From: Aquipuribacter nitratireducens
Lineage (GTDB): Bacteria; Actinomycetota; Actinomycetes; Actinomycetales; JBBAYJ01
Assembly (NCBI RefSeq): GCF_037860835.1
Contig: NZ_JBBEOG010000005.1
Span: 124,001-188,000, forward strand
Length of the DNA: 64,000 nucleotides
Reading direction: 5' to 3'
Made by a program: the position numbers and the translations under genes. Of the stretch, positions 5,027 through 60,509 are shown one piece after another; positions within the stretch are counted from its first letter, which is position 1, and every line of letters starts with the position of its first letter. The notes under the pieces are model-generated. The model was not told where the DNA came from, did not search any database, and saw only the letters and a program-made list of their open reading frames with translations.

Positions 5027-6511
5027 ATGAGTGCCCGCGACTGCGACCTCCTCGTCATCGGCGCCGGTGCCACCGGCCTGGCGGCGGCACGGACGGCTAG
5101 TTCGGCCGGGCGCCGGGTGGTAGTGGTCGAGGCGGCGCGGCCCGGTGGTGACTGCACCCACTACGGGTGCGTGCCGAGCAAGACCCTGCTCGACGTCGCC
5201 CACCGGGCCTCTGCCGCCCGCGAGGGCCGTCGCCTCGGAGTCGGTGAGATGGGCAAGGTCGACTTCCCGGCCGTCATGCGACACGTGCACGACGTCATCG
5301 ACCGGATCGAGCAGGACGAGAGCCCGGAGCTCCTCCGTCGGGAGGGCATCGACCTCCTGACGGGCTGGGCCCGCTTCGTCGAGGTGTCCGAACGCGGGAC
5401 GACCGTCGACGTCGACGGCACGCGGGTGCGTGCCGCACGGGTCGTCATCGCCTCCGGGGCCAACGCCGCCGTCCCGCCGGTCGAGGGTCTCGCCGACGTC
5501 CCCTACCTCACCAACGCGACGGTGTTCGGCCTCACCGAGCAGCCGCAGCACCTGCTCGTCATGGGCGGCGGCGCGATCGGGGTCGAGCTCGCCCAGGCCT
5601 TCGCCGGTCTCGGCACCAATGTCACGCTGGTCGAGGGCGCCCCTCGCCTGCTCGGCAAGGAGGAGCCGCAGGCGGCGGCGGTCATGGCGGGCGTCCTCAC
5701 GCGCCAGGGAGTCGACGTCCGAACCGGGTCCCAGGTCGCGTCGGTCAGGCGCGGACCCGGCGGAGGTGTCGTGCTCACCCTGGACGAAGGTAGCGAGGTC
5801 GCCGGCTCCCACCTGCTCGTGGCCGTCGGACGCCGACCTGCCACCGCCGGGATGGACCTGGACCGGGTGGACATCGAGACCGGTCAGGGCGGGGCCGTCG
5901 TCACCGACGAGCAGCTGCGGACGAGCGCCCCCGGGGTGTGGGCCGCCGGTGACTGCACGACGCCGCTGCAGTTCACCCACGTCGGCGACGCCCAGGGCCG
6001 GCTCGCCGCCCACAACGCCTTCGCCCGCAGCAGCCGGCTTCCCGAGCTGCTCGGCGGCCCCGGACGCTTCGACCCGCGGGTCGTGCCGTGGGTGACGTTT
6101 ACGGCCCCGGAGGTCGGCCGGGTCGGCCTCACCGAGGCGGAGGCGTTCGAGCGCTACGGCGCCCGGGCCCGGGTCGCGGTCGTGACGATGGCCGAGACCG
6201 ACCGGTCGCGGACGCAGTCGGCCACCGACGGCTACGTCAAGCTCGTCGCAGGCCCCCGTCGTCTCGCTCCGCACCGGCTGCTCGACGAGGTCGTCGGGAT
6301 GACCGCCGTCAGCCCGCACGCTGGCGAGCTCGCCCACACCGCGGCCCTGGCCATGCGCACCCGGATGCTGGCGGCGCGGCTCGCCCAGACGGTCGCGCCG
6401 TACCCGACGTACTCCCTCGCCCTGCGCATCGCAGCTGCCCGCCTGTTCAGCACGTTCGCCGGGCAGACGTGGCGCCCCGCCCGGGCCTCGGAGGACGGCG
6501 AGAACGCCTAG
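5027..6511 (+). CDS. FAD-dependent pyridine nucleotide-disulfide oxidoreductase (MerA/Lpd-like)
   Basis: A 494-residue class I flavoprotein disulfide reductase. Visible are the FAD dinucleotide motif (VIGAGATGLAAA), the redox disulfide (GGDCTHYGCVPSK, cysteines about 44 and 49), the NAD(P) motif (MGGGAIGVELAQAF), the second FAD motif (GVWAAGDC) and a C-terminal dimerisation domain (VPWVTFTAPEVGRVGLTE, then SPHAGEL). The CTHYGC disulfide differs from the CxNxGC of true dihydrolipoamide dehydrogenases, and the N-terminal HMA and C-terminal cysteine pair of mercuric reductase are missing. Substrate is therefore unknown. It follows the AhpD-like gene on the same strand and ends 4 bases inside the convergent hydrolase gene. 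Confidence 0.85.
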   Translation: MSARDCDLLVIGAGATGLAAARTASSAGRRVVVVEAARPGGDCTHYGCVPSKTLLDVAHRASAAREGRRLGVGEMGKVDFPAVMRHVHDVIDRIEQDESPELLRREGIDLLTGWARFVEVSERGTTVDVDGTRVRAARVVIASGANAAVPPVEGLADVPYLTNATVFGLTEQPQHLLVMGGGAIGVELAQAFAGLGTNVTLVEGAPRLLGKEEPQAAAVMAGVLTRQGVDVRTGSQVASVRRGPGGGVVLTLDEGSEVAGSHLLVAVGRRPATAGMDLDRVDIETGQGGAVVTDEQLRTSAPGVWAAGDCTTPLQFTHVGDAQGRLAAHNAFARSSRLPELLGGPGRFDPRVVPWVTFTAPEVGRVGLTEAEAFERYGARARVAVVTMAETDRSRTQSATDGYVKLVAGPRRLAPHRLLDEVVGMTAVSPHAGELAHTAALAMRTRMLAARLAQTVAPYPTYSLALRIAAARLFSTFAGQTWRPARASEDGENA

Positions 6512-7365
6512 CGCCGCCGCTGAACCACCTCGCGGTGCAGGTCGAGCACGTGGGCGGCGAGCACGTCTGGATGGTCCTCCGGGGTGAAGTGCCGACCGCC
6601 CTCGATCCGGTGCAGCGGCACCCGGAGGTCGTCGGCGAACCGCTCGCCGTACTCGACCTTCTGGAAGGGGTCCGCATCACCCCACATCACGCGAGCCGGC
6701 ACACGCAGCTCCGCGAGCCGGGGCGAGACCTCCAGGGTGTCGCGGACGTCGAGCGAGGCCACCTGCCGGGCGAGGGCCGGTCCGGCCCCGTGCTCGAGGT
6801 AGGGACGCATGTGGGTCCGCCGGGACTCCGCCGCCGTTGCCGCGTTGTCGTGGCCGCGGACGAACAGCCCCGCCAACGACGACGTGACGACACGACCGGG
6901 CAGCCGGGCCACCAGCCCGCGCGCGGCCGCGAGCACCTTGACCGACGGGACCGGCCAGGAGTCGTACCCGACGGCGTTGGTGAGGAGCAGGCCGGCGCAC
7001 AGCTCGGGACGCCGGACGGCCATGATCTGCACGACACCGCCGCCGAGGTCGTGGCCCACGAGGACCGCCTCCCGCACGCCCCGCCCGTCGAGCCAGGCGA
7101 GCAGGCGGTCGGCCTGCGCGGCCAGGCCGATGTCGCGCCCGGCGCCGGCCGGGATGCTGTCGCCGTAGCCGGTCATCTCCGGGACCAGCACCCCCAGGCC
7201 CGGCAGCAGCGGCACGACGTGCCGCCACAGTGCGGACGAGGTCGGGATGCCGTGCACCAGCACGACCGGCACGCCGCTGCGGTCCTCGCTCGCCGGCTGC
7301 TCCAGCCAGCGCAGGGGCGTGCCCTCGATGGTCGTCGTGCGGGACTCGGGTCGACGCTCGGGCAT
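6508..7365 (-). CDS. Alpha/beta hydrolase, haloalkane dehalogenase/epoxide hydrolase type
   Basis: A 285-residue alpha/beta hydrolase. The oxyanion strand VLVHGIPTSSALW is followed by a nucleophile elbow GHDLGGG in which the nucleophile is aspartate rather than serine. A late acid is visible in WGDADPF, and the base histidine in GGRHFTPEDHP. Asp nucleophiles are characteristic of haloalkane dehalogenases and epoxide hydrolases, so an ester-intermediate mechanism on a halide, epoxide or related substrate is likely; the exact substrate cannot be assigned. The ATG at 7365 precedes PERRPESRTTTIEG and gives the usual family length. It is divergent from the membrane gene at 7489, with a Crp-like palindrome between them. 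Confidence 0.85.
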   Translation of the reverse strand: MPERRPESRTTTIEGTPLRWLEQPASEDRSGVPVVLVHGIPTSSALWRHVVPLLPGLGVLVPEMTGYGDSIPAGAGRDIGLAAQADRLLAWLDGRGVREAVLVGHDLGGGVVQIMAVRRPELCAGLLLTNAVGYDSWPVPSVKVLAAARGLVARLPGRVVTSSLAGLFVRGHDNAATAAESRRTHMRPYLEHGAGPALARQVASLDVRDTLEVSPRLAELRVPARVMWGDADPFQKVEYGERFADDLRVPLHRIEGGRHFTPEDHPDVLAAHVLDLHREVVQRRR

Positions 7366-49959: not shown

Positions 49960-52900
49960 GTGACCGCACAACAGGACCGGACGGCACAGGGAGCCCGGCA
50001 CGAGCACGCGCCGCCGAGGAGCGCCGGGCTCGACGACGAGCTGACGGAGGCCCTGCTCAAGGCGCGCCGGTTCTTCCGCAAGGACTCGGTGTCGCTGGAC
50101 CTGCGGGCGCTGCACCGCACCGGCGGACGCGACGCCGACGCCTTCTACCGGGACCGCTGGGCGCACGACAAGGTCGTGCGCTCCACCCACGGCGTCAACT
50201 GCACGGGCGGCTGCTCGTGGAAGGTGTACGTCAAGGACGGCATCATCACGTGGGAGTCGCAGCAGACCGACTACCCCTCCGTCGGCCCCGACAGCCCCGA
50301 GTACGAGCCCCGCGGCTGCCCGCGTGGTGCGGCGTTCTCCTGGTACACGTACTCGCCGACCCGGGTCCGCTACCCGTACGTGCGCGGGGTGCTCCTCGAC
50401 ATGTTCCGCGAGGCGCGCGCCCGCCTCGGCGACCCGGTCCTCGCCTGGGCCGACGTCGTGGGCGACCCCGAGCGGGCGCGGCGGTACAAGGCCGCCCGCG
50501 GCAAGGGCGGGCTCGTGCGTGCGAGCTGGGACGAGGCCGTGGAGATGGTGGCCGCGGCGTACGTCCACACGGTCGAGGAGCACGGCCCCGACCGTGTCGC
50601 CGGGTTCTCGCCCATCCCCGCGATGTCGATGGTCTCCCACGCGGCCGGCGCGCGGTTCCACTCCCTCATCGGCGCGTCGATGCTGTCGTTCTACGACTGG
50701 TACGCCGACCTGCCCGTCGCCTCGCCGCAGGTCTTCGGCGACCAGACCGACGTGCCGGAGTCGGGTGACTGGTGGGACGCCGGCTACCTCGTGATGTGGG
50801 GCTCCAACGTGCCGGTCACCCGCACCCCGGACGCGCACTGGATGGCCGAGGCGCGCTACCGCGGGCAGAAGGTCGTCGTCGTGTCGCCCGACTTCGCCGA
50901 CAACACGAAGTTCGCCGACGAGTGGCTCGCGCCCCACCCCGGCACCGACGGCGCGCTCGCGATGGCGATGGGCCACGTCGTGCTCAAGGAGTTCTTCGTC
51001 GACCGGCAGGTGCCGTACTTCACCGACTACGTGAGGACGTACACCGACCTGCCGTTCCTCGTCCGCCTCGACGAGCGGGACGGCGCGTACGTGCCGGGCA
51101 AGTTCCTCACCGCCGCCGACCTCGGCGACGACGACGAGGGCGCGCACTTCAAGACCGTGCTGCTCGACGCCGCCGGCGAGCCGGTGGTGCCGAACGGCTC
51201 GCTCGGGTTCCGCTACGGCGAGGCGGGAGCGGGCCGGTGGAACCTCGATCTCGACGGCATCGAGCCGATGCTGAGCGCGGGCGGCGGTGACGGCGTCGGC
51301 GTGGGCTCGGCGGAGACCGCGCCCGTCGACCTGCCCCGCTTCGACGCCCCCGACGGCGCCGCGGGCGTCGTCCGGCGCGGGGTGCCCGTGCGCCGCGTCG
51401 GCGGGCACCTCGTCACGACGGTGCTCGACCTGCTCCTCGCCCAGTACGGCGTCGGCCGCGACGGCCTGCCGGGGCAGTGGCCGAGCGGCTACGACGACGC
51501 CTCGTCACCGTGCACGCCCGCGTGGCAGGAGACGATCACCGGGGTGCCGGCCGCACAGGCGGCCCGCATCGGGCGGGAGCTCGCGCGGAACGCCGAGGAC
51601 TCCCGTGGCCGGTCCATGATCCTCATGGGGGCCGGCACGAACCACTGGTTCCACTCCGACACGATCTACCGGTCGTTCCTCACGCTGCTGGTGCTCACCG
51701 GCTGCCAGGGGGTCAACGGCGGCGGCTGGGCGCACTACGTCGGGCAGGAGAAGGTGCGCCCGGTCACCGGGCACCAGCACATCGCGAACGCGCTCGACTG
51801 GTCGCGTCCCCCGCGCACCATGATCCAGACCGCGTACTGGTACCTCAACACCGACCAGTTCCGCTACGACCAGTTCTCCGCCGCCACGCTCGCCGCCGGC
51901 ACCGCGGGGTGGCCGCTTCGCCGGGCGCAGCACGGCCGACGTCGTGGCGCAGTCGGCGCGCATGGGCTGGATGCCGTCGTACCCGACGTTCGACCGCAAC
52001 CCGCTGCGCATCGCCGACGACGCCGACGCCGCCGGCCTGCCGGTCGGGGAGTACGTGCCGCGCGAGCTGAGGGCCGGGCGGCTGCGCTTCGCCGCGGACG
52101 ACCCGGACGCGCCGGAGAACTTCCCGCGCGTGCTCACGGTGTGGCGGGCGAACCTGCTCGGCTCCTCGAGCAAGGGCAACGAGTACTTCCTCCACCACCT
52201 GCTCGGCACCGACTCCGCGCTGCGGGCGACCGAGACACCGGAGCACCTGCGGCCGTCGGAGGTGGTGTGGCGTGACGAGGCACCGACCGGAAAGCTCGAC
52301 CTGCTGCTGAGCCTCGACTTCCGCATGACGAGCACGACGGTGTTCTCCGACGTCGTCCTGCCCGCGGCCACGTGGTACGAGAAGCACGACCTCAACACGA
52401 CGGACATGCACCCCTTCGTCAACTCCTTCACCCCGGCCATCCCGCCGCCGTGGCAGACCCGGACGGACTTCGACGCGTTCGCCACGATCGCGACGGCGTT
52501 CAGCCGGCTCGCCGCCGAGCACCTCGGCACCCGGCGCGACGTCGTCGCCGTGCCGCTCACCCACGACACCCCCGACGAGCTCGCGAACCCGCACGGCGTC
52601 GTGCGCGACTGGAAGGCCGGCGACTGCGAGCCGGAGCCGGGTCGCACGATGCCGAGGCTCGTCACCGTCGAGCGCGACTACGCCGCGGTCGCCGACAAGA
52701 TGGCAGCCCTCGGGCCGCTGCTCGACACCCTCGGCACGACGACGAAGGGCATCACGTACGACGTGCGCGAGGAGGTGGCCCGACTCGCCCGGCAGAACGG
52801 GACCGTGCGCGGCGGCGCGGCCGACGGGCGGCCGTCGCTGGCCCGCGACAAGCACGTCTGCGAGGCGATCCTCGCCCTGTCCGGCACCACCAACGGGCGC

Positions 52901-53707
52901 CTCGCGGTCCAGGGCTTCCACACACTGGAGGCCCGTACCGGGACGCGCCTCGCGGACCTCGCCGCCGAGCACGAGGGCAAGCACGTGACGTTCGCCGACA
53001 CCCAGGCGGCGCCCGTCACTGTCATCACCTCACCGGAGTGGTCGGGCACCGAGCACGGCGGACGGCGGTACTCACCGTTCACCGTCAACGTCGAGCGCCT
53101 CAAGCCGTGGCACACCCTCACGGGGCGGCAGCACTTCTTCGTCGAGCACGACTGGCTGACCGAGCTGGGGGAGAACCTGCCGGTGTTCCGGCCGCCGCTG
53201 TCCATGCACGGCCTGTTCGGTGAGCCCGAGGTCGGAGACCAGGGCGAGCTCGGCATCACCGTGCGGTACCTCACGCCGCACAACAAGTGGTCGATCCACT
53301 CCGAGTACCAGGACAACCTCCTCATGCTGAGCCTGTCCCGCGGTGGGCCGACGATCTGGCTGAGCGTGGAGGACGCCGCGAAGATCGGCGTCGAGGACAA
53401 CGACTGGATCGAGGCGGTCAACCGCAACGGCGTGGTCGTGGCCCGCGCCGTCGTCTCCCACCGCATGCCGGAGGGGACGGTGTACATGCACCACGCGCAG
53501 GACCGCCTCATCGACGTCCCGAAGGCGGAGACGTCGGGCCGACGGGGCGGCATCCACAACTCGCTGACACGGCTGCTGGTGAAGCCCAGCCACCTCATCG
53601 GCGGGTACGCGCAGCTGTCGTACGCGTTCAACTACCTGGGGCCGACCGGCAACCAGCGCGACGAGGTGACCGTCATCCGTCGCCGTTCGCAGGAGGTGCA
53701 GTACTGA
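49960..53707 (+). pseudogene. narG: Respiratory nitrate reductase alpha subunit, interrupted by a frameshift
   Basis: The catalytic molybdenum subunit, about 1,249 residues in total, which reduces nitrate to nitrite on the cytoplasmic face. The first frame runs from GTG 49960 with the N-terminal 4Fe-4S site (THGVNCTGGCSWKVYV), GCPRGAAFSWYTYSPTRVRY and SFYDWYADLPVASPQVFGDQ, to YDQFSAATLAAGT. At about 51900-51911 the reading must shift by a net +1, after which GRFAGRSTADVVAQSARMGW continues in the next frame to 53707. Apart from that indel both halves are full and conserved. It is either an inactivating mutation or a sequence error; everything downstream in the operon is intact. Translated as is, the first frame stops at 52275. 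Confidence 0.9.
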
Positions 53708-55389
53708 TGCGCGTCATGGCCCAGATGTCGATGGTGATGAACCTCGACAAGTGCATCGGCTGCCACACCTGCTCGGTGACGTGCAAGCAGGCGTGGACCA
53801 ACCGCACGGGCGTGGAGTACGTGTGGTTCAACAACGTCGAGACCCGGCCCGGACAGGGCTACCCGCGTACCTACCAGGACCAGGAGAAGTGGCAGGGCGG
53901 GTGGGTGCGCACCCGTCGCGGGCGGCTGCGGCTGCGCGCGGGCAACCGGCTCAAGAACCTCCTGACGATCTTCTCCAGCCCGAAGATGCCGTCGCTCCAG
54001 CAGTACTACGAGCCGTGGACCTACGACTACGAGACGCTGACCAGCGCGCCCGCGCAGCAGGACACGCCCGTCGCGCGGCCGAAGTCGCTCATCAGCGGCA
54101 AGGACATGCGGATCTCGTGGTCGGCGAACTGGGACGACGACCTCGGCGGCGGTCCGAGGCTCGTGGCCGACGACCCGATCCTCGCCAAGCTGGAGAAGGA
54201 CGTGCTGCTGTCCTTCGAGAGCACCTTCATGTTCTACCTGCCGCGCATCTGCGAGCACTGCCTCAACCCGTCGTGTGCCGCCTCGTGCCCCTCCGGTGCG
54301 GTGTACAAGCGCGCGGAGGACGGGATCGTGCTCGTCGACCAGGACGGCTGCAAGGGCTGGCGCAAGTGCGTGACCGGCTGCCCGTACAAGAAGATCTACT
54401 TCAACCACCGCACCGGCAAGGCCGAGAAGTGCACGTTCTGCTTCCCCCGGATCGAGGTGGGGCTGCCGACCGTGTGCTCGGAGACGTGCGTGGGCCGGCT
54501 GCGCTACATCGGGCTCGTGCTGTACGACGCCGACCGCGTGCTCGACGCGGCGTCGGTGGAGGACGAGCACGACCTGCTCGAGGCGCAGCGGCAGGTGTTC
54601 CTCGACCCGAACGACCCCGAGGTGGTCCGCGAGGCCGAGCGCGCGGGGATCCCGCGGGACTGGGTGGAGGCCGCGCAGCGCTCACCGATCCACGCCCTCA
54701 TCAACCGATTCCGGGTCGCTCTGCCCCTGCACCCGGAGTACCGGACCATGCCGATGGTCTGGTACATCCCGCCGCTGTCGCCGGTCGTCGACGCCGTCTC
54801 GAGCACGGGCGTCGACGCCGAGGACCCCCGGAACCTGTTCGCCGCCATCGACACCCTCCGCATCCCGGTGGAGTACCTCGCCGAGCTGTTCACCGCGGGC
54901 GACACCGCACCGGTCACCGCGGTGCTGCAGCGTCTCGCGGCGATGCGGTCGTACATGCGCGACATCAACCTCGGCCGCGACCCGGACGCGTCGATCCCCG
55001 CCTCGGTCGGCATGACCGAGGAGGAGATGTACGACATGTTCCGCCTCCTCGCGCTGGCCAAGTACGACGAGCGCTACGTGATCCCGCCGTCGCACGCCGA
55101 GCAGGCCCACGGGCTCGAGGAGCTCGCGACGGAGTGCAGCCTCGACTACGAGGGCGGCCCGGGCATGGGTGGGCACGGGCCGTTCGGCGAGGGCTCCGGT
55201 GCGCAGGCCCGCATCGCGGAGGAGAACCTCTACGCCCTCGCGGTGCGGCAGCGCACGGACTTCGCCACCGACCCCGCCGACAAGTCCCGCCGGGTCAACC
55301 TCCTCAACTGGGACGGCAAGGGCACGCCGCAGGGGCTGTTCCCCAAGGAGGAGCGCGAGGACCCGGCACGGCGGGGGCCGGGCTCGTGA
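53707..55389 (+). CDS. narH: Respiratory nitrate reductase beta subunit
   Basis: A 560-residue electron-transfer subunit with four iron-sulfur clusters. Cysteine clusters: DKCIGCHTCSVTCKQAW (residues about 15-31), CEHCLNPSCAASCPSGA (about 185-201), CKGWRKCVTGCPYKKIYF (one cluster is 3Fe-4S through the tryptophan) and EKCTFCFPRIEVGLPTVCSE. It carries electrons from NarI haems to NarG on the cytoplasmic side. The ATG at 53707 shares one base with the narG stop. The C-terminal region, RVNLLNWDGKG, is typical of Actinobacteria. The gene is intact. Confidence 0.95.
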   Translation: MRVMAQMSMVMNLDKCIGCHTCSVTCKQAWTNRTGVEYVWFNNVETRPGQGYPRTYQDQEKWQGGWVRTRRGRLRLRAGNRLKNLLTIFSSPKMPSLQQYYEPWTYDYETLTSAPAQQDTPVARPKSLISGKDMRISWSANWDDDLGGGPRLVADDPILAKLEKDVLLSFESTFMFYLPRICEHCLNPSCAASCPSGAVYKRAEDGIVLVDQDGCKGWRKCVTGCPYKKIYFNHRTGKAEKCTFCFPRIEVGLPTVCSETCVGRLRYIGLVLYDADRVLDAASVEDEHDLLEAQRQVFLDPNDPEVVREAERAGIPRDWVEAAQRSPIHALINRFRVALPLHPEYRTMPMVWYIPPLSPVVDAVSSTGVDAEDPRNLFAAIDTLRIPVEYLAELFTAGDTAPVTAVLQRLAAMRSYMRDINLGRDPDASIPASVGMTEEEMYDMFRLLALAKYDERYVIPPSHAEQAHGLEELATECSLDYEGGPGMGGHGPFGEGSGAQARIAEENLYALAVRQRTDFATDPADKSRRVNLLNWDGKGTPQGLFPKEEREDPARRGPGS

Positions 55390-56015
55390 GCGCGGCCGAC
55401 CGACGGACCGCGCTGGTGTACCAGGTCGCCTCGCGGCTGCTCGGCTACCCCGACGAGCAGCTGCTCGCCCAGCTGCCGCTGCTGCGCGACGCCGTCGACC
55501 AGCTGCCCCAGCCGGCGCGCACGCAGCTCGGCTCGCTGCTGGAGCACCTTGCCGGGTCCGAGCCCACGGCGCTGGGCGCGGAGTACGTCGGCACGTTCGA
55601 CCTGCGGCGGCGCTGCTGCCCGTACCTCACGTACTACGCCTACGGCGACACGCGGAAACGCGGCGTCGCGCTGCTCGCGTTCACGCACGCGTACAAGGCG
55701 GCCGGGCTCGTCATGCACCCCGACGAGCTGCCCGACCACCTGTGCGTCGTGCTGGAGTTCGCCGCCACCGCCGACCTCGACGTCGGGCGCCGGCTGCTGC
55801 TGGACCACCGCGCGGGACTGGAGCTCATGCGGCTGTCCCTGGCCGACGCCGCCTCGCCGTGGGCCGGCGCGCTCGCCGCCGTCACCGGCACGCTGCCCCC
55901 GCTGCGCGGCGACGAGCGCGAGGCGGTGCGCCGTCTCGCCGCCGAGGGGCCGCCCGAGGAGGAGGTCGGACTCGAACCGTTCGCACCACCGGACTACATG
56001 GGAGCACGCCGATGA
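55386..56015 (+). CDS. narJ: Nitrate reductase molybdenum cofactor assembly chaperone
   Basis: A 209-residue NarJ chaperone (TorD/DmsD-like) needed for insertion of the molybdenum cofactor into NarG before membrane assembly. Recognised by the all-helical pattern LVYQVASRLLGYPDEQLLAQ and the conserved EYVGTFDLRRRCCPYLTYYA, then GDTRKRGVALLAFTHAYKAA, and PDELPDHLCVVLEFAA. Its GTG overlaps the narH stop, and its stop overlaps the narI start. Length matches other actinobacterial NarJ proteins. Confidence 0.93.
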   Translation: MSAADRRTALVYQVASRLLGYPDEQLLAQLPLLRDAVDQLPQPARTQLGSLLEHLAGSEPTALGAEYVGTFDLRRRCCPYLTYYAYGDTRKRGVALLAFTHAYKAAGLVMHPDELPDHLCVVLEFAATADLDVGRRLLLDHRAGLELMRLSLADAASPWAGALAAVTGTLPPLRGDEREAVRRLAAEGPPEEEVGLEPFAPPDYMGARR

Positions 56016-56758
56016 GCGACGCCGGAGCCCTCGACATCCTGCTGTGGGTCGTCGTGCCGTACCTCTGCCTCGCGGTGTTCGTGCTCGGGCACGTCTGGCG
56101 CTACCGCTACGACAAGTTCGGCTGGACCACCCGGTCCTCGCAGATGTACGAGAGCCGGCTGCTGCGCATCGGCAGCCCGCTGTTCCACTTCGGCATCCTC
56201 GCGGTCTTCCTCGGTCACGTCCTCGGGCTCGGCATCCCCAAGTCGTGGACGGAGGCCGTGGGCGTCTCCGAGCCGATCTACCACTTCATGGCGGTGAGCA
56301 TCGGCACGGTCGCGGGGGTCTGCTCGGTGGTCGGGGCCGCGATCCTCATCTACCGCCGCCGCACGACCGGCCCGGTCTTCGCGGCCACGACGGTGATGGA
56401 CAAGGTGATGTGGCTGGCGCTCGGCCTCGTCATGGTGCTCGGACTCGGCAACACCGTCGTCGCCAACATCTTCGACCACTACGACTACCGGGAGACCGTG
56501 TCGGTGTGGTTCCGCGGAATCTTCGGCGGCGACCTGCAGCCCGACCTCATCGCCGGTGCGCCGATCGGGTTCCAGCTGCACGCGCTCACGGCGTTCCTGC
56601 TGTTCGCGCTGTGGCCGTTCACCCGGCTGGTCCACGTCTTCAGCGCGCCGGTCGGCTACCTGTGGCGCCCCTATGTGGTCTACCGCAGCCGCGACGACCG
56701 CATGGGCTCCCGCACCCAGCGCCCCGGCTGGGAGCGGGTCGGCTCCGGCCGTCGCTGA
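56012..56758 (+). CDS. narI: Respiratory nitrate reductase gamma subunit (cytochrome b)
   Basis: A 248-residue membrane subunit with five helices and two b haems, which oxidises menaquinol and passes electrons to NarH. Seen are LWVVVPYLCLAVFVLGHVWR, the helix LFHFGILAVFLGHVLGLGIP with haem-ligand histidines, YHFMAVSIGTVAGVCSVVGA, and the last helix IGFQLHALTAFLLFALWPFT followed by RLVHVFSAPVGYLWRPYVVY. The ATG overlaps the narJ stop (ATGA). It ends the operon; an 11-bp hairpin follows. Confidence 0.95.
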   Translation: MSDAGALDILLWVVVPYLCLAVFVLGHVWRYRYDKFGWTTRSSQMYESRLLRIGSPLFHFGILAVFLGHVLGLGIPKSWTEAVGVSEPIYHFMAVSIGTVAGVCSVVGAAILIYRRRTTGPVFAATTVMDKVMWLALGLVMVLGLGNTVVANIFDHYDYRETVSVWFRGIFGGDLQPDLIAGAPIGFQLHALTAFLLFALWPFTRLVHVFSAPVGYLWRPYVVYRSRDDRMGSRTQRPGWERVGSGRR

Positions 56759-56789
56759 CGCCCAGGCGTCGCGGCAGCCGTCTCGCGTT

Positions 56790-56819
56790 CCTCGACCGGA
56801 CGGCGACCTCCGGTCGAGG
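56790..56819 (+). terminator. Strong hairpin after narI
   Basis: Perfect 11-bp stem CCTCGACCGGA / TCCGGTCGAGG with an 8-base loop, 31 bp after the narI stop. No T-run follows, as is common for actinobacterial terminators. It probably ends the narGHJI transcript or protects its 3' end. Confidence 0.65.
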
Positions 56820-57028
56820 ACGTCCGACGGTCGCCTGCGCACGAGCGAGGCGGTGCGTGCGGTCCTGTCCTCGCTCTCCGGTCACCACGACGTGCACCGA
56901 CGAGCACGTCCACGCCGGGATCGCCGACGAGTGGCGGGTCGGTCACGTCGGACGGTGAGGCACACGGGTGCCTGTCCGCGTCCGCGACACTGGAGGTCCC
57001 GTACCGCACCGACGATGTGGAGCCGCAC

Positions 57029-57785
57029 GTGCCCGAGGGAACAGTCCGATGGTTCGACACCGAACGGGGCTTCGGCTTCGTCGGCCCCGACGACGGCAGC
57101 GAGGACCTGTTCGTCCACGCCACCGACATCGTCGCCGGCGACGGTCCGCGCGTGCTACGGGAGGGCCAGGCGGTCGAGTTCGAGCTCGGCCACAACGCAC
57201 GCGGCCCGCAGGCGGTGCGGGTGCGCGTCACCGCGGACTCGGCGCCGGGTGCGGTGCTCGGAGTGCTCGGGACCGTGTCCTGGTACGAGCCGGCCAAGGG
57301 GTACGGCTTCGTCGCGCCCGACGGTGGGGGCGCGGAGGTCTTCGTCCACAGCTCGGCCGTCGTCGGCGGCGGCGTCCTGTCCGACGGGCAGCGGGTCGCG
57401 TTCCTCGTCGGTGAGGGTGAGAAGGGGCCGCAGGCGGAGCACCTGCTGCCGCTCGCCCCCGGTGCAGGCACCGGCAGCCCTCCCGCGCCCGACGGCGCCG
57501 ACGGCACCGTGTCGTGGTTCGACGAGGAGCGGGGCTTCGGGTTCCTCACCCCGGACGACGGCGCGGAGGACGTCTTCGTCCACGTGCGGTCGCTGTCCGG
57601 TGGGGCGACCGTGCTCGAGGAGGGGGACCGCGTCACGTACGACGTCGTCGGCGGTGACCGGGGGCCGCAGGCGCGCGACGTCCGGGTCGTGGGCGGGCGG
57701 GCCGTCCGCGCCCAGCGCGGCCGCGCCGGGACCACGGCGGCCCGTCAGCCCCGCCGAGCGGCGGGGGACCCGCCGTCGCGCGGGG
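57029..57785 (+). CDS. Protein with three tandem cold-shock domains
   Basis: Three cold-shock domains are encoded in one frame. CSD1 (residues about 1-66): [15 protein letters not shown] with RNP2 [12 protein letters not shown]2 (about 80-145): [20 protein letters not shown] with [12 protein letters not shown]3 (about 155-220): [20 protein letters not shown] with DVFVHVRSL. Both RNA-binding motifs are kept in each. A linker rich in Arg, Ala and Gly follows, and the frame then runs out of homology, while a fourth domain continues in the next frame. The GTG at 57029 gives the usual PEGTVRWF start; GTG 57017 is four codons earlier. The end given is where the homologous reading stops being reliable; the open frame itself runs to 58063. 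RNA chaperone activity is likely. Confidence 0.75.
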
Positions 57786-57980
57786 GTGAGGGGGACGGTC
57801 GCGCGCTTCGACGCCGAGCGCGGTTTCGGCTTCATCACGCCCGACTCCGGCAATGCCGACCTGTTCGTCCACGTCTCCGTGGTGACGGGCGGGGAGCCGC
57901 TGGAGGAGGGGGACCGCGTCCGCTTCTCGGTCCGGCAGAGCGACAGGGGTCCGCAGGCCGATCGCGTCGAGCAGATCTGA
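57786..57980 (+). CDS. Fourth cold-shock domain, separate CspA-like ORF or frameshifted extension
   Basis: From a GTG at 57786 this encodes 64 residues that form one complete cold-shock domain: [29 protein letters not shown], then [20 protein letters not shown]. Size is that of a free CspA. It is in the +1 frame relative to the three-domain protein and separated from it by only the linker. Two readings are possible: a separate small gene, or the last domain of a four-domain protein whose frame is broken at the G-rich CGCGGGGGTGAGGGGG run. Which is right cannot be decided from the sequence alone. Confidence 0.7.
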
Positions 57981-58748
57981 TCAGCGCTCCGACCACACCC
58001 GGACGCGACGGACGTCGCCGGTCTTCGGGTAGAGCGACGGGTCGAGCGGCCCGCCGTCGGTGAGGTCGAAGAGGTCGACGAACAGCAGCAGCGGGTAGGC
58101 GACCTGCTGGTCGACGACCCGGACGACCCGGTCGTCGACCGTGAACCGGATCCCCGGCGCACGCGCCGACCACTCGACGCCGTACGTGTGCCACTGCGTC
58201 GCATCGAGCGGCAGGGTGAGGGTCGCCATGTCGTCCTGCAGCCGGGGGTCGTGGTGCGCCTCCACACCGACGTTGACGTCGCTCTCCCCGGGCCGGATCG
58301 CGTGACCGAACAGCTCGACCGCGCAGAGGACTCCGGCGTCGGTCGGGTCGTCGACCTCGGTGCCGGCGAGCCAGAACGCGAGCATCGCCGTGGGGTCCGG
58401 CCGCATCCGCAGCGTCGCCTCCGCACGCCCGCCGGTCGGCGTGCACAGCAGCCGGGTCGGCTCCGGCGTCACCACCCGCAGGCCGGGCCGGTGCCGGTGG
58501 CTGCCGCGCTCGGAGCCGGCGGGACCGGAGAACGTCGCGGTCTGCAGGCTCGACACCCGCACGCCCGGCTCGTCGGGGTGCCACGCGCGCTGGTCGGCGT
58601 CGACGCGCAGGCGCAGACCGTCGGGCCCGAGGTCGTAGCGGGCCGCGGTCAGCTCCGGTGTCGACCACTGCGGCAGGTAGTGGGGCACCCACCGGTCGAG
58701 GTCGAGCGCCGGGGCGTCGAAGCGGTCGTCGAGGACGAGGCGCGTCAC
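57981..58748 (-). CDS. Glycoside hydrolase family 16-like protein
   Basis: A 255-residue cytoplasmic protein with a concanavalin-like GH16 pattern: [20 protein letters not shown] at the start, [40 protein letters not shown] (the conserved WHTYxxEW of GH16) and [16 protein letters not shown]. The catalytic ExDxxE is degenerate: only one acid remains in [11 protein letters not shown]. There is no signal peptide. It may be an inactive or divergent beta-glucan binding enzyme. GTG 58748 is chosen as start. It is convergent with the cold-shock genes, with stop codons abutting at 57980/57981. Confidence 0.72.
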
Positions 58749-58762
58749 GGCCGCAGCATGCC

Positions 58763-59206
58763 TCACACCCGCCGCCAGCGGACCGCGACGACGACCGCAG
58801 CCCCGAGCAGGACGACCTCCATGGCGCTGCCGACGACGTAGTACGCCCACGTCTCGCCGATGCACGAGACCGCGATCGACACCGCGTACAGGCTCGCGAC
58901 GACGACGGTGAGAGGTCGCACGACCCGTTGGGGCAGCACGAGCGACAGCACGACCATGAGGGACGGCACGGCGACGTACGCGAGGGTGAGGAGCAGGAAC
59001 CGCTGGTCGACGGTGAACCCGACGCCGGCCACCTCGCCGTCGAGGGCGGCCGACAGCACGTCGGCGCGGAAGAACCCGAAGATGTCGACGTAGGCGAAGA
59101 CGAGCATCGTCGTCGTCCACAGCGCGCTGAGGACGAGGCCCGGGTGCGGGTGGGGAGCGGTGCCGCGACCGGGTGCGGCGGCGAGGTCGGGAGTGGTGGC
59201 GGACAC
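58763..59206 (-). CDS. Small membrane protein (DUF6326-like)
   Basis: A 147-residue protein with four hydrophobic helices: VLSALWTTTMLVFAYVDIFG, FLLLTLAYVAVPSLMVVLSL, VVRPLTVVVASLYAVSIAVS and AYYVVGSAMEVVLLGAAVVV. The FAYVDIFGFFR segment between helices is typical of the DUF6326 group. Function unknown. The GTG at 59206 follows GAAGGAGGCCCC on the minus strand, a strong ribosome site. It is divergent from the sensor kinase gene (159 bp apart), and such proteins may be targets of the adjacent two-component system. Confidence 0.75.
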   Translation of the reverse strand: MSATTPDLAAAPGRGTAPHPHPGLVLSALWTTTMLVFAYVDIFGFFRADVLSAALDGEVAGVGFTVDQRFLLLTLAYVAVPSLMVVLSLVLPQRVVRPLTVVVASLYAVSIAVSCIGETWAYYVVGSAMEVVLLGAAVVVAVRWRRV

Positions 59207-59363
59207 GGGGCCTCCTTCGTGGTGGGCTGGACGGGTGCCAGCGTGGCGCCGCGCCCGCCCGGCCGGACCGGCCTCACGGCCGGAGTCCTCCCGGTCCTCC
59301 GGCCGGGCGCGACCTGGCCGGAAGGACGGTCCGCGGGGGAGCGGGCAGCCGTAGCCTCCTGAC

Positions 59364-60509
59364 GTGCTGTGGCAGGGGACCCCCGAGTGGCTGTCGCGGC
59401 CCCGTGTCGGCGACGCCGCCCTCGTCACGGCGGTCGGGGTCGCCACCGTGGTCGACGTCGTGCGGCAGGCGACGCCCCCGGCCGCTCTCCTCGCCGCCGC
59501 CGTCGGGGTCGTGATGGCTGCCGGCGTCCTGCTCCGACGCCGTCGGCCCGGCGGGGTGCTGCTCGCCGCGGCCGTCGTGGTCGCCGGCGTCGACGCGGTC
59601 TCCGTGGGATTCACCGGGCTGCCGCGTACCTTCCTCAGCGCCGTCGCCGTGCTCGTGCTCGTCGTCGCGTGGGGCAGGTGGGGGACGCGCCGCGACGCCG
59701 TCACGGGCGCTGCCGGCCTGGTCCTGCTCGCCGTCGCGGGCGTATGGGCGTCGGCGGCCTCTCCCGACGAGGCCGTCGCGGGCGTCGCGGTGCTCGTCGG
59801 GTCGGCCCTGCTCGGTGCGACCGTCCGCTACCGCGCGACGGTGCGCGAGCAGGCGATGGACGCCGCGCGGCTGCAGGAGCGGGAGCTGCTCGCCAGGGAG
59901 CTCCACGACAGCGTCGCCCACGCCGTCACCGCGATCGCCGTGCAGGCGCAGGCGGGCCTCGTGCTCCTGGAGGACGACGACGCGGACGCGCGACGGCGCC
60001 TCGCCACCGGTCTCCGGCTCGTCGAGCGCGAGGCGGCACGGTGCCTCACCGACATGCGGGACCTCGTGGCGACGCTGCGCACGGTCGACGGTCCCACCCT
60101 CGCGCGGGCGGTGGACGCCGCGGCCATCCGCGCGCTCGCCGTCCCCACCGCGACCTCGGGCGTGCCCGTCGTGGTCGACGTCGAGGGCGACCTCGACGGG
60201 TTCGGCGAGGCGCAGCGCTGGGCGGCCTACAGGGTCGTGCAGGAGGCGCTGACGAACACGCGCCGGCACGCGCGGCACGCCACGGGGGTCCGTGTGACCG
60301 TCGACGCGGGCCGCGACGAGCTCGTCGTGACGGTCACCGACGACGGCGACCCCGCCCGTCTGCTCGCGCACCCGCCCGGGCACGGTCTGGTCGGCATGGC
60401 GGAGCGGGTGCGGCTCCTCGGCGGCAGCCTCGCCGCGGGTCCCGTCGGGGAGACCGGCGGGGCCGCAGGCTGGCGGGTCGAGGCGCGGCTGCCCCGGCGG
60501 TCCAGGTGA
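59364..60509 (+). CDS. Two-component sensor histidine kinase (NarL-partner type)
   Basis: A 381-residue kinase of the HisKA_3 class. The N terminus has about four or five membrane helices (residues 18-155) with little outside them, so the sensing is likely intramembrane. The phosphoacceptor is in ELLARELHDSVAHAVTAIAV (His about 181) and the ATPase domain holds VVQEALTNTRRHARHATGVR (N box) and DDGDPARLLAHPPGHGLVGM (G boxes). The GTG at 59364 has no strong ribosome site. The response regulator follows with a 4-bp overlap. This is the organisation of DesK/LiaS-like pairs; the stimulus is unknown. Confidence 0.92.
   Translation: MLWQGTPEWLSRPRVGDAALVTAVGVATVVDVVRQATPPAALLAAAVGVVMAAGVLLRRRRPGGVLLAAAVVVAGVDAVSVGFTGLPRTFLSAVAVLVLVVAWGRWGTRRDAVTGAAGLVLLAVAGVWASAASPDEAVAGVAVLVGSALLGATVRYRATVREQAMDAARLQERELLARELHDSVAHAVTAIAVQAQAGLVLLEDDDADARRRLATGLRLVEREAARCLTDMRDLVATLRTVDGPTLARAVDAAAIRALAVPTATSGVPVVVDVEGDLDGFGEAQRWAAYRVVQEALTNTRRHARHATGVRVTVDAGRDELVVTVTDDGDPARLLAHPPGHGLVGMAERVRLLGGSLAAGPVGETGGAAGWRVEARLPRRSR

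What the first reader, a model, noticed from the sequence alone, without database searches (positions are those of the whole stretch)
57029..57980. Four tandem cold-shock domains, three in frame and one in the next frame
Bacterial cold-shock proteins are usually single 65-70 residue domains. Here three complete domains, each with both RNA-binding motifs, are in one frame; a fourth complete domain follows after an Arg/Ala/Gly linker in the +1 frame, starting at a GTG. A multi-domain form, similar in layout to eukaryotic multi-CSD RNA-binding proteins, would be unusual.
Basis: seen in the sequence. Interest (0 to 1): 0.6.

Follow-up and report, generated by a model that had tools for sequence, protein, structure and literature searches.

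The report
Four-domain cold-shock protein, frame broken
The sequence encodes one member of a little-studied actinobacterial protein family that carries four different cold-shock (RNA-binding) domains in a row; the apparent split of the fourth domain into another frame comes from a one-letter length difference in a run of Gs in this one genome, probably a sequencing error or a recent mutation.

Summary
CSD1-3 lie in one frame from a GTG at 57029; CSD4 lies in the next frame, ending at the stop 57978-57980. The domains are not separate genes, and the frame change is not part of the design. In 78 of 80 related loci examined the same four domains lie in one open frame; the exceptions are a contig end and a damaged Pseudokineococcus marinus copy. 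Each domain position forms its own clade, so the four-domain form is old and the window's CSD4 belongs to position 4. The break maps to a G-run (57790-57794) in a conserved linker motif. CSD4 shows no decay, so the break is recent or a sequencing/assembly error. I favour error; reads are needed. A conserved element about 43 nt before the start suggests the gene's own promoter. Best function guess: a multivalent single-strand RNA binder or chaperone, CSD1-CSD2 at near-fixed spacing and CSD4 on an Arg/Gly-rich disordered tether, working somewhat like eukaryotic Unr/CSDE1. Function is inferred, not shown. Six searches of an open-access library listed no paper on four-CSD bacterial proteins; a two-CSD bacterial protein is known (Caulobacter CspD).

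The parts
56980..56995 (+). conserved upstream element (GTCNGNGACACTGGNG), with the GACACT core at 56986-56991, 43 nt before the start codon; probable -10-type promoter element
   Evidence: Core in the 80 nt upstream of 71 of 79 genes (78 intact loci plus window), against mean 3.2 (max 9) in 200 mononucleotide shuffles and 13 of 341 neighbouring ORFs. Motif chosen by eye from the same set of related sequences. Promoter role is inference.
57019..57022 (+). GGAG, Shine-Dalgarno-like
   Evidence: Seen in sequence; GGAG stands just before the start in 20 of the 20 relatives printed (20 of 78).
57029..57031 (+). start codon GTG (V/M-P-E-G-T-V)
   Evidence: Start codon followed by P-x-G-T-V in at least 51 of 78 relatives (only the 15 commonest contexts were printed).
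57038..57229 (+). CSD1; RNP1 RGFGFV, RNP2 LFVH
   Evidence: position-1 clade
57269..57451 (+). CSD2; RNP1 KGYGFV, RNP2 VFVH; 13 residues after CSD1
   Evidence: position-2 clade
57503..57691 (+). CSD3; RNP1 RGFGFL, RNP2 VFVH
   Evidence: position-3 clade
57692..57791 (+). Arg/Ala/Gly-rich linker CSD3-CSD4, ending in the conserved motif R-G-G-E-G
   Evidence: Linker composition over 78 relatives G 23%, R 19%, A 16%, P 14%; pLDDT below 50 at residues 226-260 of a relative's model.
57790..57794 (+). G-run where the reading frame changes in this genome
   Evidence: The consensus motif R-G-G-E-G is read in the CSD1-3 frame up to here, and [VT]-[VI]-x-R-[YF]-D in the CSD4 frame after it. The 78 intact relatives have no frame change here.
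57792..57977 (+). CSD4, in the +1 frame relative to CSD1-3; RNP1 RGFGFI, RNP2 LFVH; Arg in place of the usual RNA-stacking Trp; stop TGA 57978-57980
   Evidence: position-4 clade
57795..58063 (+). out-of-frame continuation of the CSD1-3 frame (Arg-rich, no domain seen), which would be the C-terminal tail if the sequence is right and no frame correction occurs
   Evidence: ORF 57017-58063; GC3 0.46 over the CSD4 stretch, i.e. not a coding pattern

Best explanation
This is one gene for a four-cold-shock-domain protein conserved in several Actinomycetes families. In this assembly its frame is interrupted by a one-base length difference in a G-run just before CSD4. That is most likely a sequencing/assembly error (my estimate 60%), otherwise a recent frameshift mutation (about 35%). 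The intact-type protein (about 315 residues) most likely works as a multivalent single-strand RNA binder or chaperone. CSD1 and CSD2 are held 12-15 residues apart, CSD3 follows after a short linker, and CSD4 is tethered by a disordered basic Arg/Gly-rich linker, so that individually modest domains bind long single-stranded RNA by avidity and keep it unfolded or regulate its translation. Shown here: the architecture, the old and position-specific identity of each domain, the frame conservation in relatives, the lack of decay in CSD4 and the conserved upstream element. Inferred: RNA as the ligand, avidity, chaperone or translational role, promoter role of the element, error as the cause of the break.
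For: Four CSDs in one open frame in 78 of 80 loci examined and in four whole-genome relatives G001, G010, G027, G028. Each domain position is a separate clade of 79 of 79 sequences without intruders, support 0.938, 0.997, 0.726 and 0.851. Own-position HMMs score 123-133 bits on average against 59-79 for the other positions. CSD4 of the window: 126.7 bits against a mean of 130.8 (SD 3.3), 8 of 78 relatives lower; dN 0.13-0.20 and dS 0.59-0.90 against the six relatives (of 78) compared, within the dN range of CSD1-3. GC3 0.93 in the CSD4 frame. Two related assemblies also fail at or next to this linker, each differently: in G002 CSD1-3 sit at the start of contig C83 and CSD4 at the end of C14, and L115 (P. 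marinus) has lost part of CSD3 and most of the linker with a frame change. Model of relative L037, from 40 of the 78 intact sequences: a five-strand pattern four times, pLDDT mostly 85-96 in domains and below 50 in the last linker, pTM 0.34. Top Foldseek matches are Drosophila Unr multi-CSD fragments, then single cold-shock proteins.
Against: No reads were seen, so error against real mutation is not decided. The window's contig is not unusually rich in frame breaks: 3 candidate events in 304 kb, against 2 in 155 kb of G001. The Foldseek matches to Unr fragments have low global TM-scores (0.19-0.30 for the first three), so they reflect repeated CSDs rather than a shared overall arrangement. CSD4 lacks the usual stacking Trp in 79 of 79, and in most members all four domains lack the last aromatic of RNP2, so RNA affinity may be weak or absent in some. 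No expression or binding data were available.
Confidence: 0.7

Rival explanations
1. Real, recent frameshift mutation: this strain makes a three-CSD protein with an Arg-rich out-of-frame tail (to 58063), and CSD4 is lost.
For: The assembled sequence as given. A three-CSD protein exists elsewhere in the order (L032: 3 CSDs in one ORF), so a three-domain form could be viable. The contig shows no excess of frame breaks.
Against: CSD4 shows no decay and keeps coding GC3, so such a mutation must be very young. In relatives CSD4 is kept in frame in 78 of 80 loci.
Confidence: 0.35
2. Programmed +1 frameshifting or G-run phase variation sets the ratio of three- and four-domain forms in this lineage.
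For: The break falls on a G-run in which a glycine tRNA could re-pair after a +1 slip (sequence; mechanism recalled). CSD4 is intact.
Against: 78 of 80 loci are in frame. No stop codon near the site. A 5-base G/C run is ordinary here, with 120 in the 64-kb window. L115's frame change is of a different kind.
Confidence: 0.03
3. Two or more separate csp genes, CSD4 with its own GTG start.
For: A GTG exists at 57786 in the CSD4 frame.
Against: No stop separates the domains in 78 of 80 loci. That GTG is inside the conserved R-G-G-E-G motif. CSD4 has its own conserved position in the fused protein.
Confidence: 0.01
4. Rival on function, not on the gene: the protein acts on single-stranded DNA or nascent transcripts (antitermination) rather than as an mRNA chaperone or translation regulator.
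For: The CSDs of CSDE1 bind both ssDNA and ssRNA (PMC7825780, passage). NCBIfam's best model is the CspE antiterminator, but that is a sum over repeated single domains.
Against: No DNA-linked neighbour was noticed among the commonest gene clusters; the commonest shared neighbourhood is dnaK with grpE, dnaJ and hspR, in 19 of 80 loci.
Confidence: 0.25

Closest known systems
Single-domain bacterial cold-shock proteins (CspA/CspB/CspE type)
   Same: Each of the four domains is a PF00313 cold-shock domain with RNP1 and RNP2; the best solved chain by sequence is 5o6f, cold shock protein A of Corynebacterium pseudotuberculosis.
   Different: Four position-specific domains in one chain. CSD4 has Arg for the stacking Trp (79 of 79), and the residue after F-V-H is mostly A, S, V/A or V in CSD1-4.
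Caulobacter CspD, a two-CSD protein
   Same: A bacterial protein with more than one CSD (PMC4830024, passages).
   Different: Two domains, not four; alphaproteobacterial. No sequence comparison made here.
Eukaryotic Unr/CSDE1 (five canonical CSDs plus four non-canonical ones)
   Same: Tandem CSDs in one chain; Drosophila Unr CSD789 and CSD456 are the top Foldseek matches. Changed binding residues in some domains recall Unr's non-canonical CSDs (abstract of PMC7383231).
   Different: Four domains instead of nine; no evidence of fixed inter-domain contacts (pTM 0.34); descent from a common multi-CSD ancestor was not tested.
Three-CSD protein of another Actinomycetales genome (L032)
   Same: Several CSDs in one open frame with Gly/Arg-rich linkers.
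   Different: Domains look close to ordinary CspA (KWFNAEKGFGFIEP) with long linkers; not the same family by appearance, but no tree was made (the outgroup step found nothing).

Membership tests
PF00313 cold-shock domain | Score over the Pfam gathering cut-off (27 bits) | tested here: met
   Three stretches in the CSD1-3 frame (212 bits in all), 75 bits for CSD4
PF00313 cold-shock domain | RNP1 and RNP2 motifs in each domain | tested here: met
   All four window domains carry [KR]G[FY]GF and [LV]FVH
Bacterial Csp (single-domain) | One domain of about 65-70 residues | tested here: not met
   Four domains in one open frame in 78 of 80 related loci
Four-CSD actinobacterial family (defined here) | Four position-specific CSDs in order 1-2-3-4 | tested here: met
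   Window domains fall in clades 1-4 in order and score best with own-position HMMs
Four-CSD actinobacterial family (defined here) | All four domains in one open reading frame | tested here: not met
   Window has a frame change in the G-run 57790-57794; 78 of 80 loci are in frame. It is a family member by sequence, but an interrupted copy as assembled.
Unr/CSDE1 | Nine CSDs, canonical and non-canonical | tested here: not met
   Four CSDs
Unr/CSDE1 | Fixed contacts between neighbouring CSDs | tested here: inconclusive
   Near-constant CSD1-CSD2 spacing, 12-15 residues in 79 of 79, but pTM 0.34
Programmed frameshift gene | Frame change conserved in relatives | tested here: not met
   No frame change in 78 of 80 loci; of the other two, L112 ends before CSD4 and L115 has a different lesion
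Single-strand nucleic acid binder | Binding to ssRNA/ssDNA | not testable with these tools
   Needs binding assays

The most novel reading that the evidence does not exclude
The family is a bacterial counterpart of Unr/CSDE1: an old protein in which four CSDs took on distinct jobs. CSD1-CSD2 form a fixed reading unit, CSD4 (Trp replaced by Arg in all 79 sequences examined) acts as a non-stacking or pseudo-RNA-binding domain, and the Arg/Gly-rich tether promotes RNA-dependent condensation, giving these actinobacteria a sequence- or structure-selective regulator of mRNAs instead of a general RNA chaperone.
Probability: 0.25. Interest if true: 0.6.

Novelty: new variant of a known kind. Interest (0 to 1): 0.4.

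Why it matters
Bacterial cold-shock proteins are usually taken to be single small domains. A conserved, non-redundant four-domain form would let the logic of multivalent CSD-RNA recognition, studied in animals with Unr/CSDE1, be tested in easily grown soil bacteria. The case also shows how one frame break in a GC-rich linker can hide part of such a gene from annotation.

Tried and rejected
Separate csp genes: rejected, because 78 of 80 loci have one open frame. Conserved programmed frameshift: rejected as a family trait. Decayed CSD4: rejected by HMM scores, dN/dS and GC3.

Estimating the assembly's frameshift rate by comparing contig C5 of G000 with contig C7 of G001 failed: the contigs are not syntenic, and only 1 of 106 G001 ORFs and 0 of 218 G000 ORFs gave a usable match. 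A home-made frame-switch HMM, with penalties chosen by me and not calibrated, gave 3 events in 304 kb of G000 C5 and 2 in 155 kb of G001 C7, which does not separate error from mutation.

Rfam in 54000-60000: 0 matches. Plasmids: 1523 records match by CSD similarity and in 31 one place covers at least 80% of the query; the 15 rows listed are at 50-54% identity, each joined from 3 pieces, and none was looked at further. Upstream element in G000: 3 exact hits (this gene included) and 17 with one mismatch, against 4 hits of the reversed pattern. Of the 19 other hits I looked at four (L137, L138, L147, L152): L138 showed no match in the orientation read, and the other three stand before or inside other genes; no regulon is claimed. 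HspR-type repeats (motif recalled, up to 3 mismatches) were found in all 19 loci with dnaK downstream, near the start of dnaK; two further loci (L040, L080) have a single 3-mismatch hit; none was found in the 13 kb of the window searched. The domain tree had no outgroup because my search for one in the script returned nothing; it was rooted at the midpoint. Literature: in an open-access library only; listings were read, and four papers were opened.

Full report
Observation. Window 57029-57691 encodes three complete cold-shock domains in one frame, and 57792-57977 encodes a fourth in the next frame, ending at TGA 57978-57980. Pfam PF00313 scores 212 bits over three stretches and 75 bits for the fourth. 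Third-position GC is 0.92 in the frame of CSD1-3 and 0.93 in the frame of CSD4, and only 0.46 if the first frame is carried through CSD4. Both parts therefore look like used coding sequence.

What it is. A profile search of the own genome found six CSD matches: the four here and two single ones on contig C8. Of 39 genomes of the order (own included), six carry a long match to the window's three-domain part: G000, G001, G002, G010, G027 and G028. In G001, G010, G027 and G028 all four domains lie in one ORF. A scan of a collection with one genome per species found 134 stretches that encode a relative and returned the best 80, which I examined. In 78 of 80 the four domains lie in one open frame. 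The exceptions are L112, whose contig ends after CSD3, and L115 (Pseudokineococcus marinus), which has lost part of CSD3 and most of the linker with a frame change. Record titles of the 80 name 24 genera by my count, among them Isoptericola, Cellulomonas, Promicromonospora, Kineosporia, Janibacter, Pseudonocardia, Actinomycetospora, Virgisporangium and Dactylosporangium. The family is nevertheless sparse: at E<=1e-40 a query from Isoptericola halotolerans hits 5 of 197 genomes drawn across the class, own genome included, and 1 of 246 across the phylum, the own genome only. One of the five (G082) is a partial hit over residues 3-191 at 53% identity. The window's own genus was not named by any tool.

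An old, position-specific architecture. In a tree of the 4 x 79 domains (78 intact loci and the window; no outgroup, midpoint root) each position is one clade without intruders, with FastTree support 0.938, 0.997, 0.726 and 0.851. Domains score 123-133 bits on average with the HMM of their own position and 59-79 with the others. The four domains thus diverged before these genera did. The CSD1-CSD2 spacer is 12-15 residues in 79 of 79 sequences, CSD2-CSD3 14-30, and CSD3-CSD4 25-78. The last linker in the 78 relatives is G 23%, R 19%, A 16%, P 14%, with mean net charge +4 (range -2 to +8).

The frame break. The consensus of the relatives' linker end is R-G-G-E-G-[VT]-[VI]-x-R-[YF]-D, running straight into CSD4. 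In the window R-G-G-E-G is read in the CSD1-3 frame and T-V-A-R-F-D in the CSD4 frame, so the change falls in the G-run 57790-57794. CSD4 is not decayed: 126.7 bits against a mean of 130.8 (SD 3.3), with 8 of 78 relatives lower; for CSD1, CSD2 and CSD3 the numbers lower are 4, 34 and 8. Against six relatives (of 78) dN of CSD4 is 0.13-0.20 and dS 0.59-0.90, while dN of CSD1-3 is 0.09-0.26. The break is therefore recent or an error. Two other assemblies fail at or next to the same linker, in different ways: L115, and G002, where CSD1-3 sit at the start of contig C83 and CSD4 at the end of C14. This suggests a stretch that is hard to sequence or assemble. Against that, a frame-switch HMM of my own found 3 candidate events in 304 kb of this contig and 2 in 155 kb of G001, so the assembly is not unusually bad. 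One of the 3 is narG in the same window, near 51.9 kb, whose Molybdopterin domain is split between frames (profile positions 1-248 and 241-351). I put error at 60%, recent mutation at 35% and programmed slippage at 3%; these are judgements.

Regulation and surroundings. A core GA[CG]A[CA]T stands in the 80 nt upstream of 71 of 79 genes, in 64 of the 71 at 41-46 nt before the start codon, against a mean of 3.2 (max 9) in 200 shuffles and 13 of 341 neighbouring ORFs. Aligned on the core, 69 sequences show GTC[GA]GGGA[CG]ACTGG and no clear -35 box. The motif was chosen from the same data and the sequences are related, so the shuffle comparison overstates its strength. I read it as a -10-type promoter with a leader of about 30 nt, without a long cspA-like leader; this is inference. 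Rfam finds nothing in 54000-60000. In 19 of 80 loci, all from Cellulomonas/Isoptericola-type genera by their titles, dnaK lies downstream on the same strand (dnaJ also recognised in 17 of the 19, an hspR-like gene in 16), with HspR-type repeats (motif recalled) near the start of dnaK; the window has no such neighbours. The window's neighbours are nitrate reductase genes upstream (narG by Pfam; narJ and narI read by eye) and a probable family-16 glycoside hydrolase on the other strand downstream (21.7 bits, just below Pfam's cut-off of 22). Minus-strand ORFs over the gene are what high GC gives opposite a coding strand; I saw no reason to take them as genes.

Mechanism. All four domains keep RNP1 and RNP2, but the stacking Trp, present in the 3 solved chains aligned, is Arg in CSD4 in 79 of 79. 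The residue after F-V-H, aromatic in 2 of those 3 chains and His in the third, is A in 76 of 79 (CSD1), S in 77 (CSD2), V or A in 77 (CSD3) and V in 72 (CSD4). One of the own genome's two single CSDs also has A there (L006), so this trait is not unique. A model of the intact relative L037, made from 40 of the 78 intact sequences, gives four five-strand domains with high confidence, a disordered last linker (pLDDT below 50, residues 226-260) and pTM 0.34. Foldseek ranks Drosophila Unr CSD789 and CSD456 first, with low global TM-scores (0.19-0.30), followed mainly by single cold-shock domains, many at TM about 0.8-0.97 of the target. The simplest reading is a multivalent single-strand RNA binder or chaperone with weak-to-moderate single domains and a flexible basic tether. 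This is inferred.

Known and unknown. NCBIfam showed no four-CSD model; its 11 hits are sums over single-domain models. Caulobacter CspD has two CSDs (PMC4830024, passages). Unr has five canonical and four non-canonical CSDs (PMC7383231, abstract and outline). A review of CSDs (PMC7825780, passages and a figure legend) describes CSDE1 as the multi-CSD protein in the passages seen. Searches for four-, three-, tandem- or multiple-CSD proteins listed no paper on this family (open-access library only; listings read, lists capped at 13-20 rows; PMC6950789 was seen in passages, and concerns several csp genes per genome).

Verdict. Real: one interrupted member of a conserved and, as far as these searches go, undescribed four-CSD family; the frame change itself is ordinary. 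New variant of a known kind, interest 0.4.

Noticed in passing
window 49966-53698: narG (nitrate reductase alpha subunit) appears frame-broken near 51.9 kb: the Molybdopterin domain is split between two frames.
   Followed up: partly
G000 contig C5, about 233.8-235.2 kb (outside the window): A third candidate frame break, in a gene that looks by eye like a SpoIIE/RsbU-type phosphatase.
   Followed up: partly
19 of the 80 related loci, e.g. L038, L046, L050, L102: The four-CSD gene lies upstream of dnaK on the same strand, with dnaJ recognised in 17 and an hspR-like gene in 16 of the 19, in Cellulomonas/Isoptericola-type genera.
   Followed up: partly
L032 (G009 contig C9): A different three-CSD protein with long Gly-rich linkers and near-canonical CspA-like domains.
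   Followed up: partly
L060, upstream of the four-CSD gene: The conserved upstream element appears twice, 22 nt apart (cores 65 and 43 nt before the start), as if duplicated.
   Followed up: no
L115 (Pseudokineococcus marinus JCM 14547) 6481-6761: The four-CSD gene has lost part of CSD3 and most of the linker, with a frame change; possibly an assembly collapse.
   Followed up: partly
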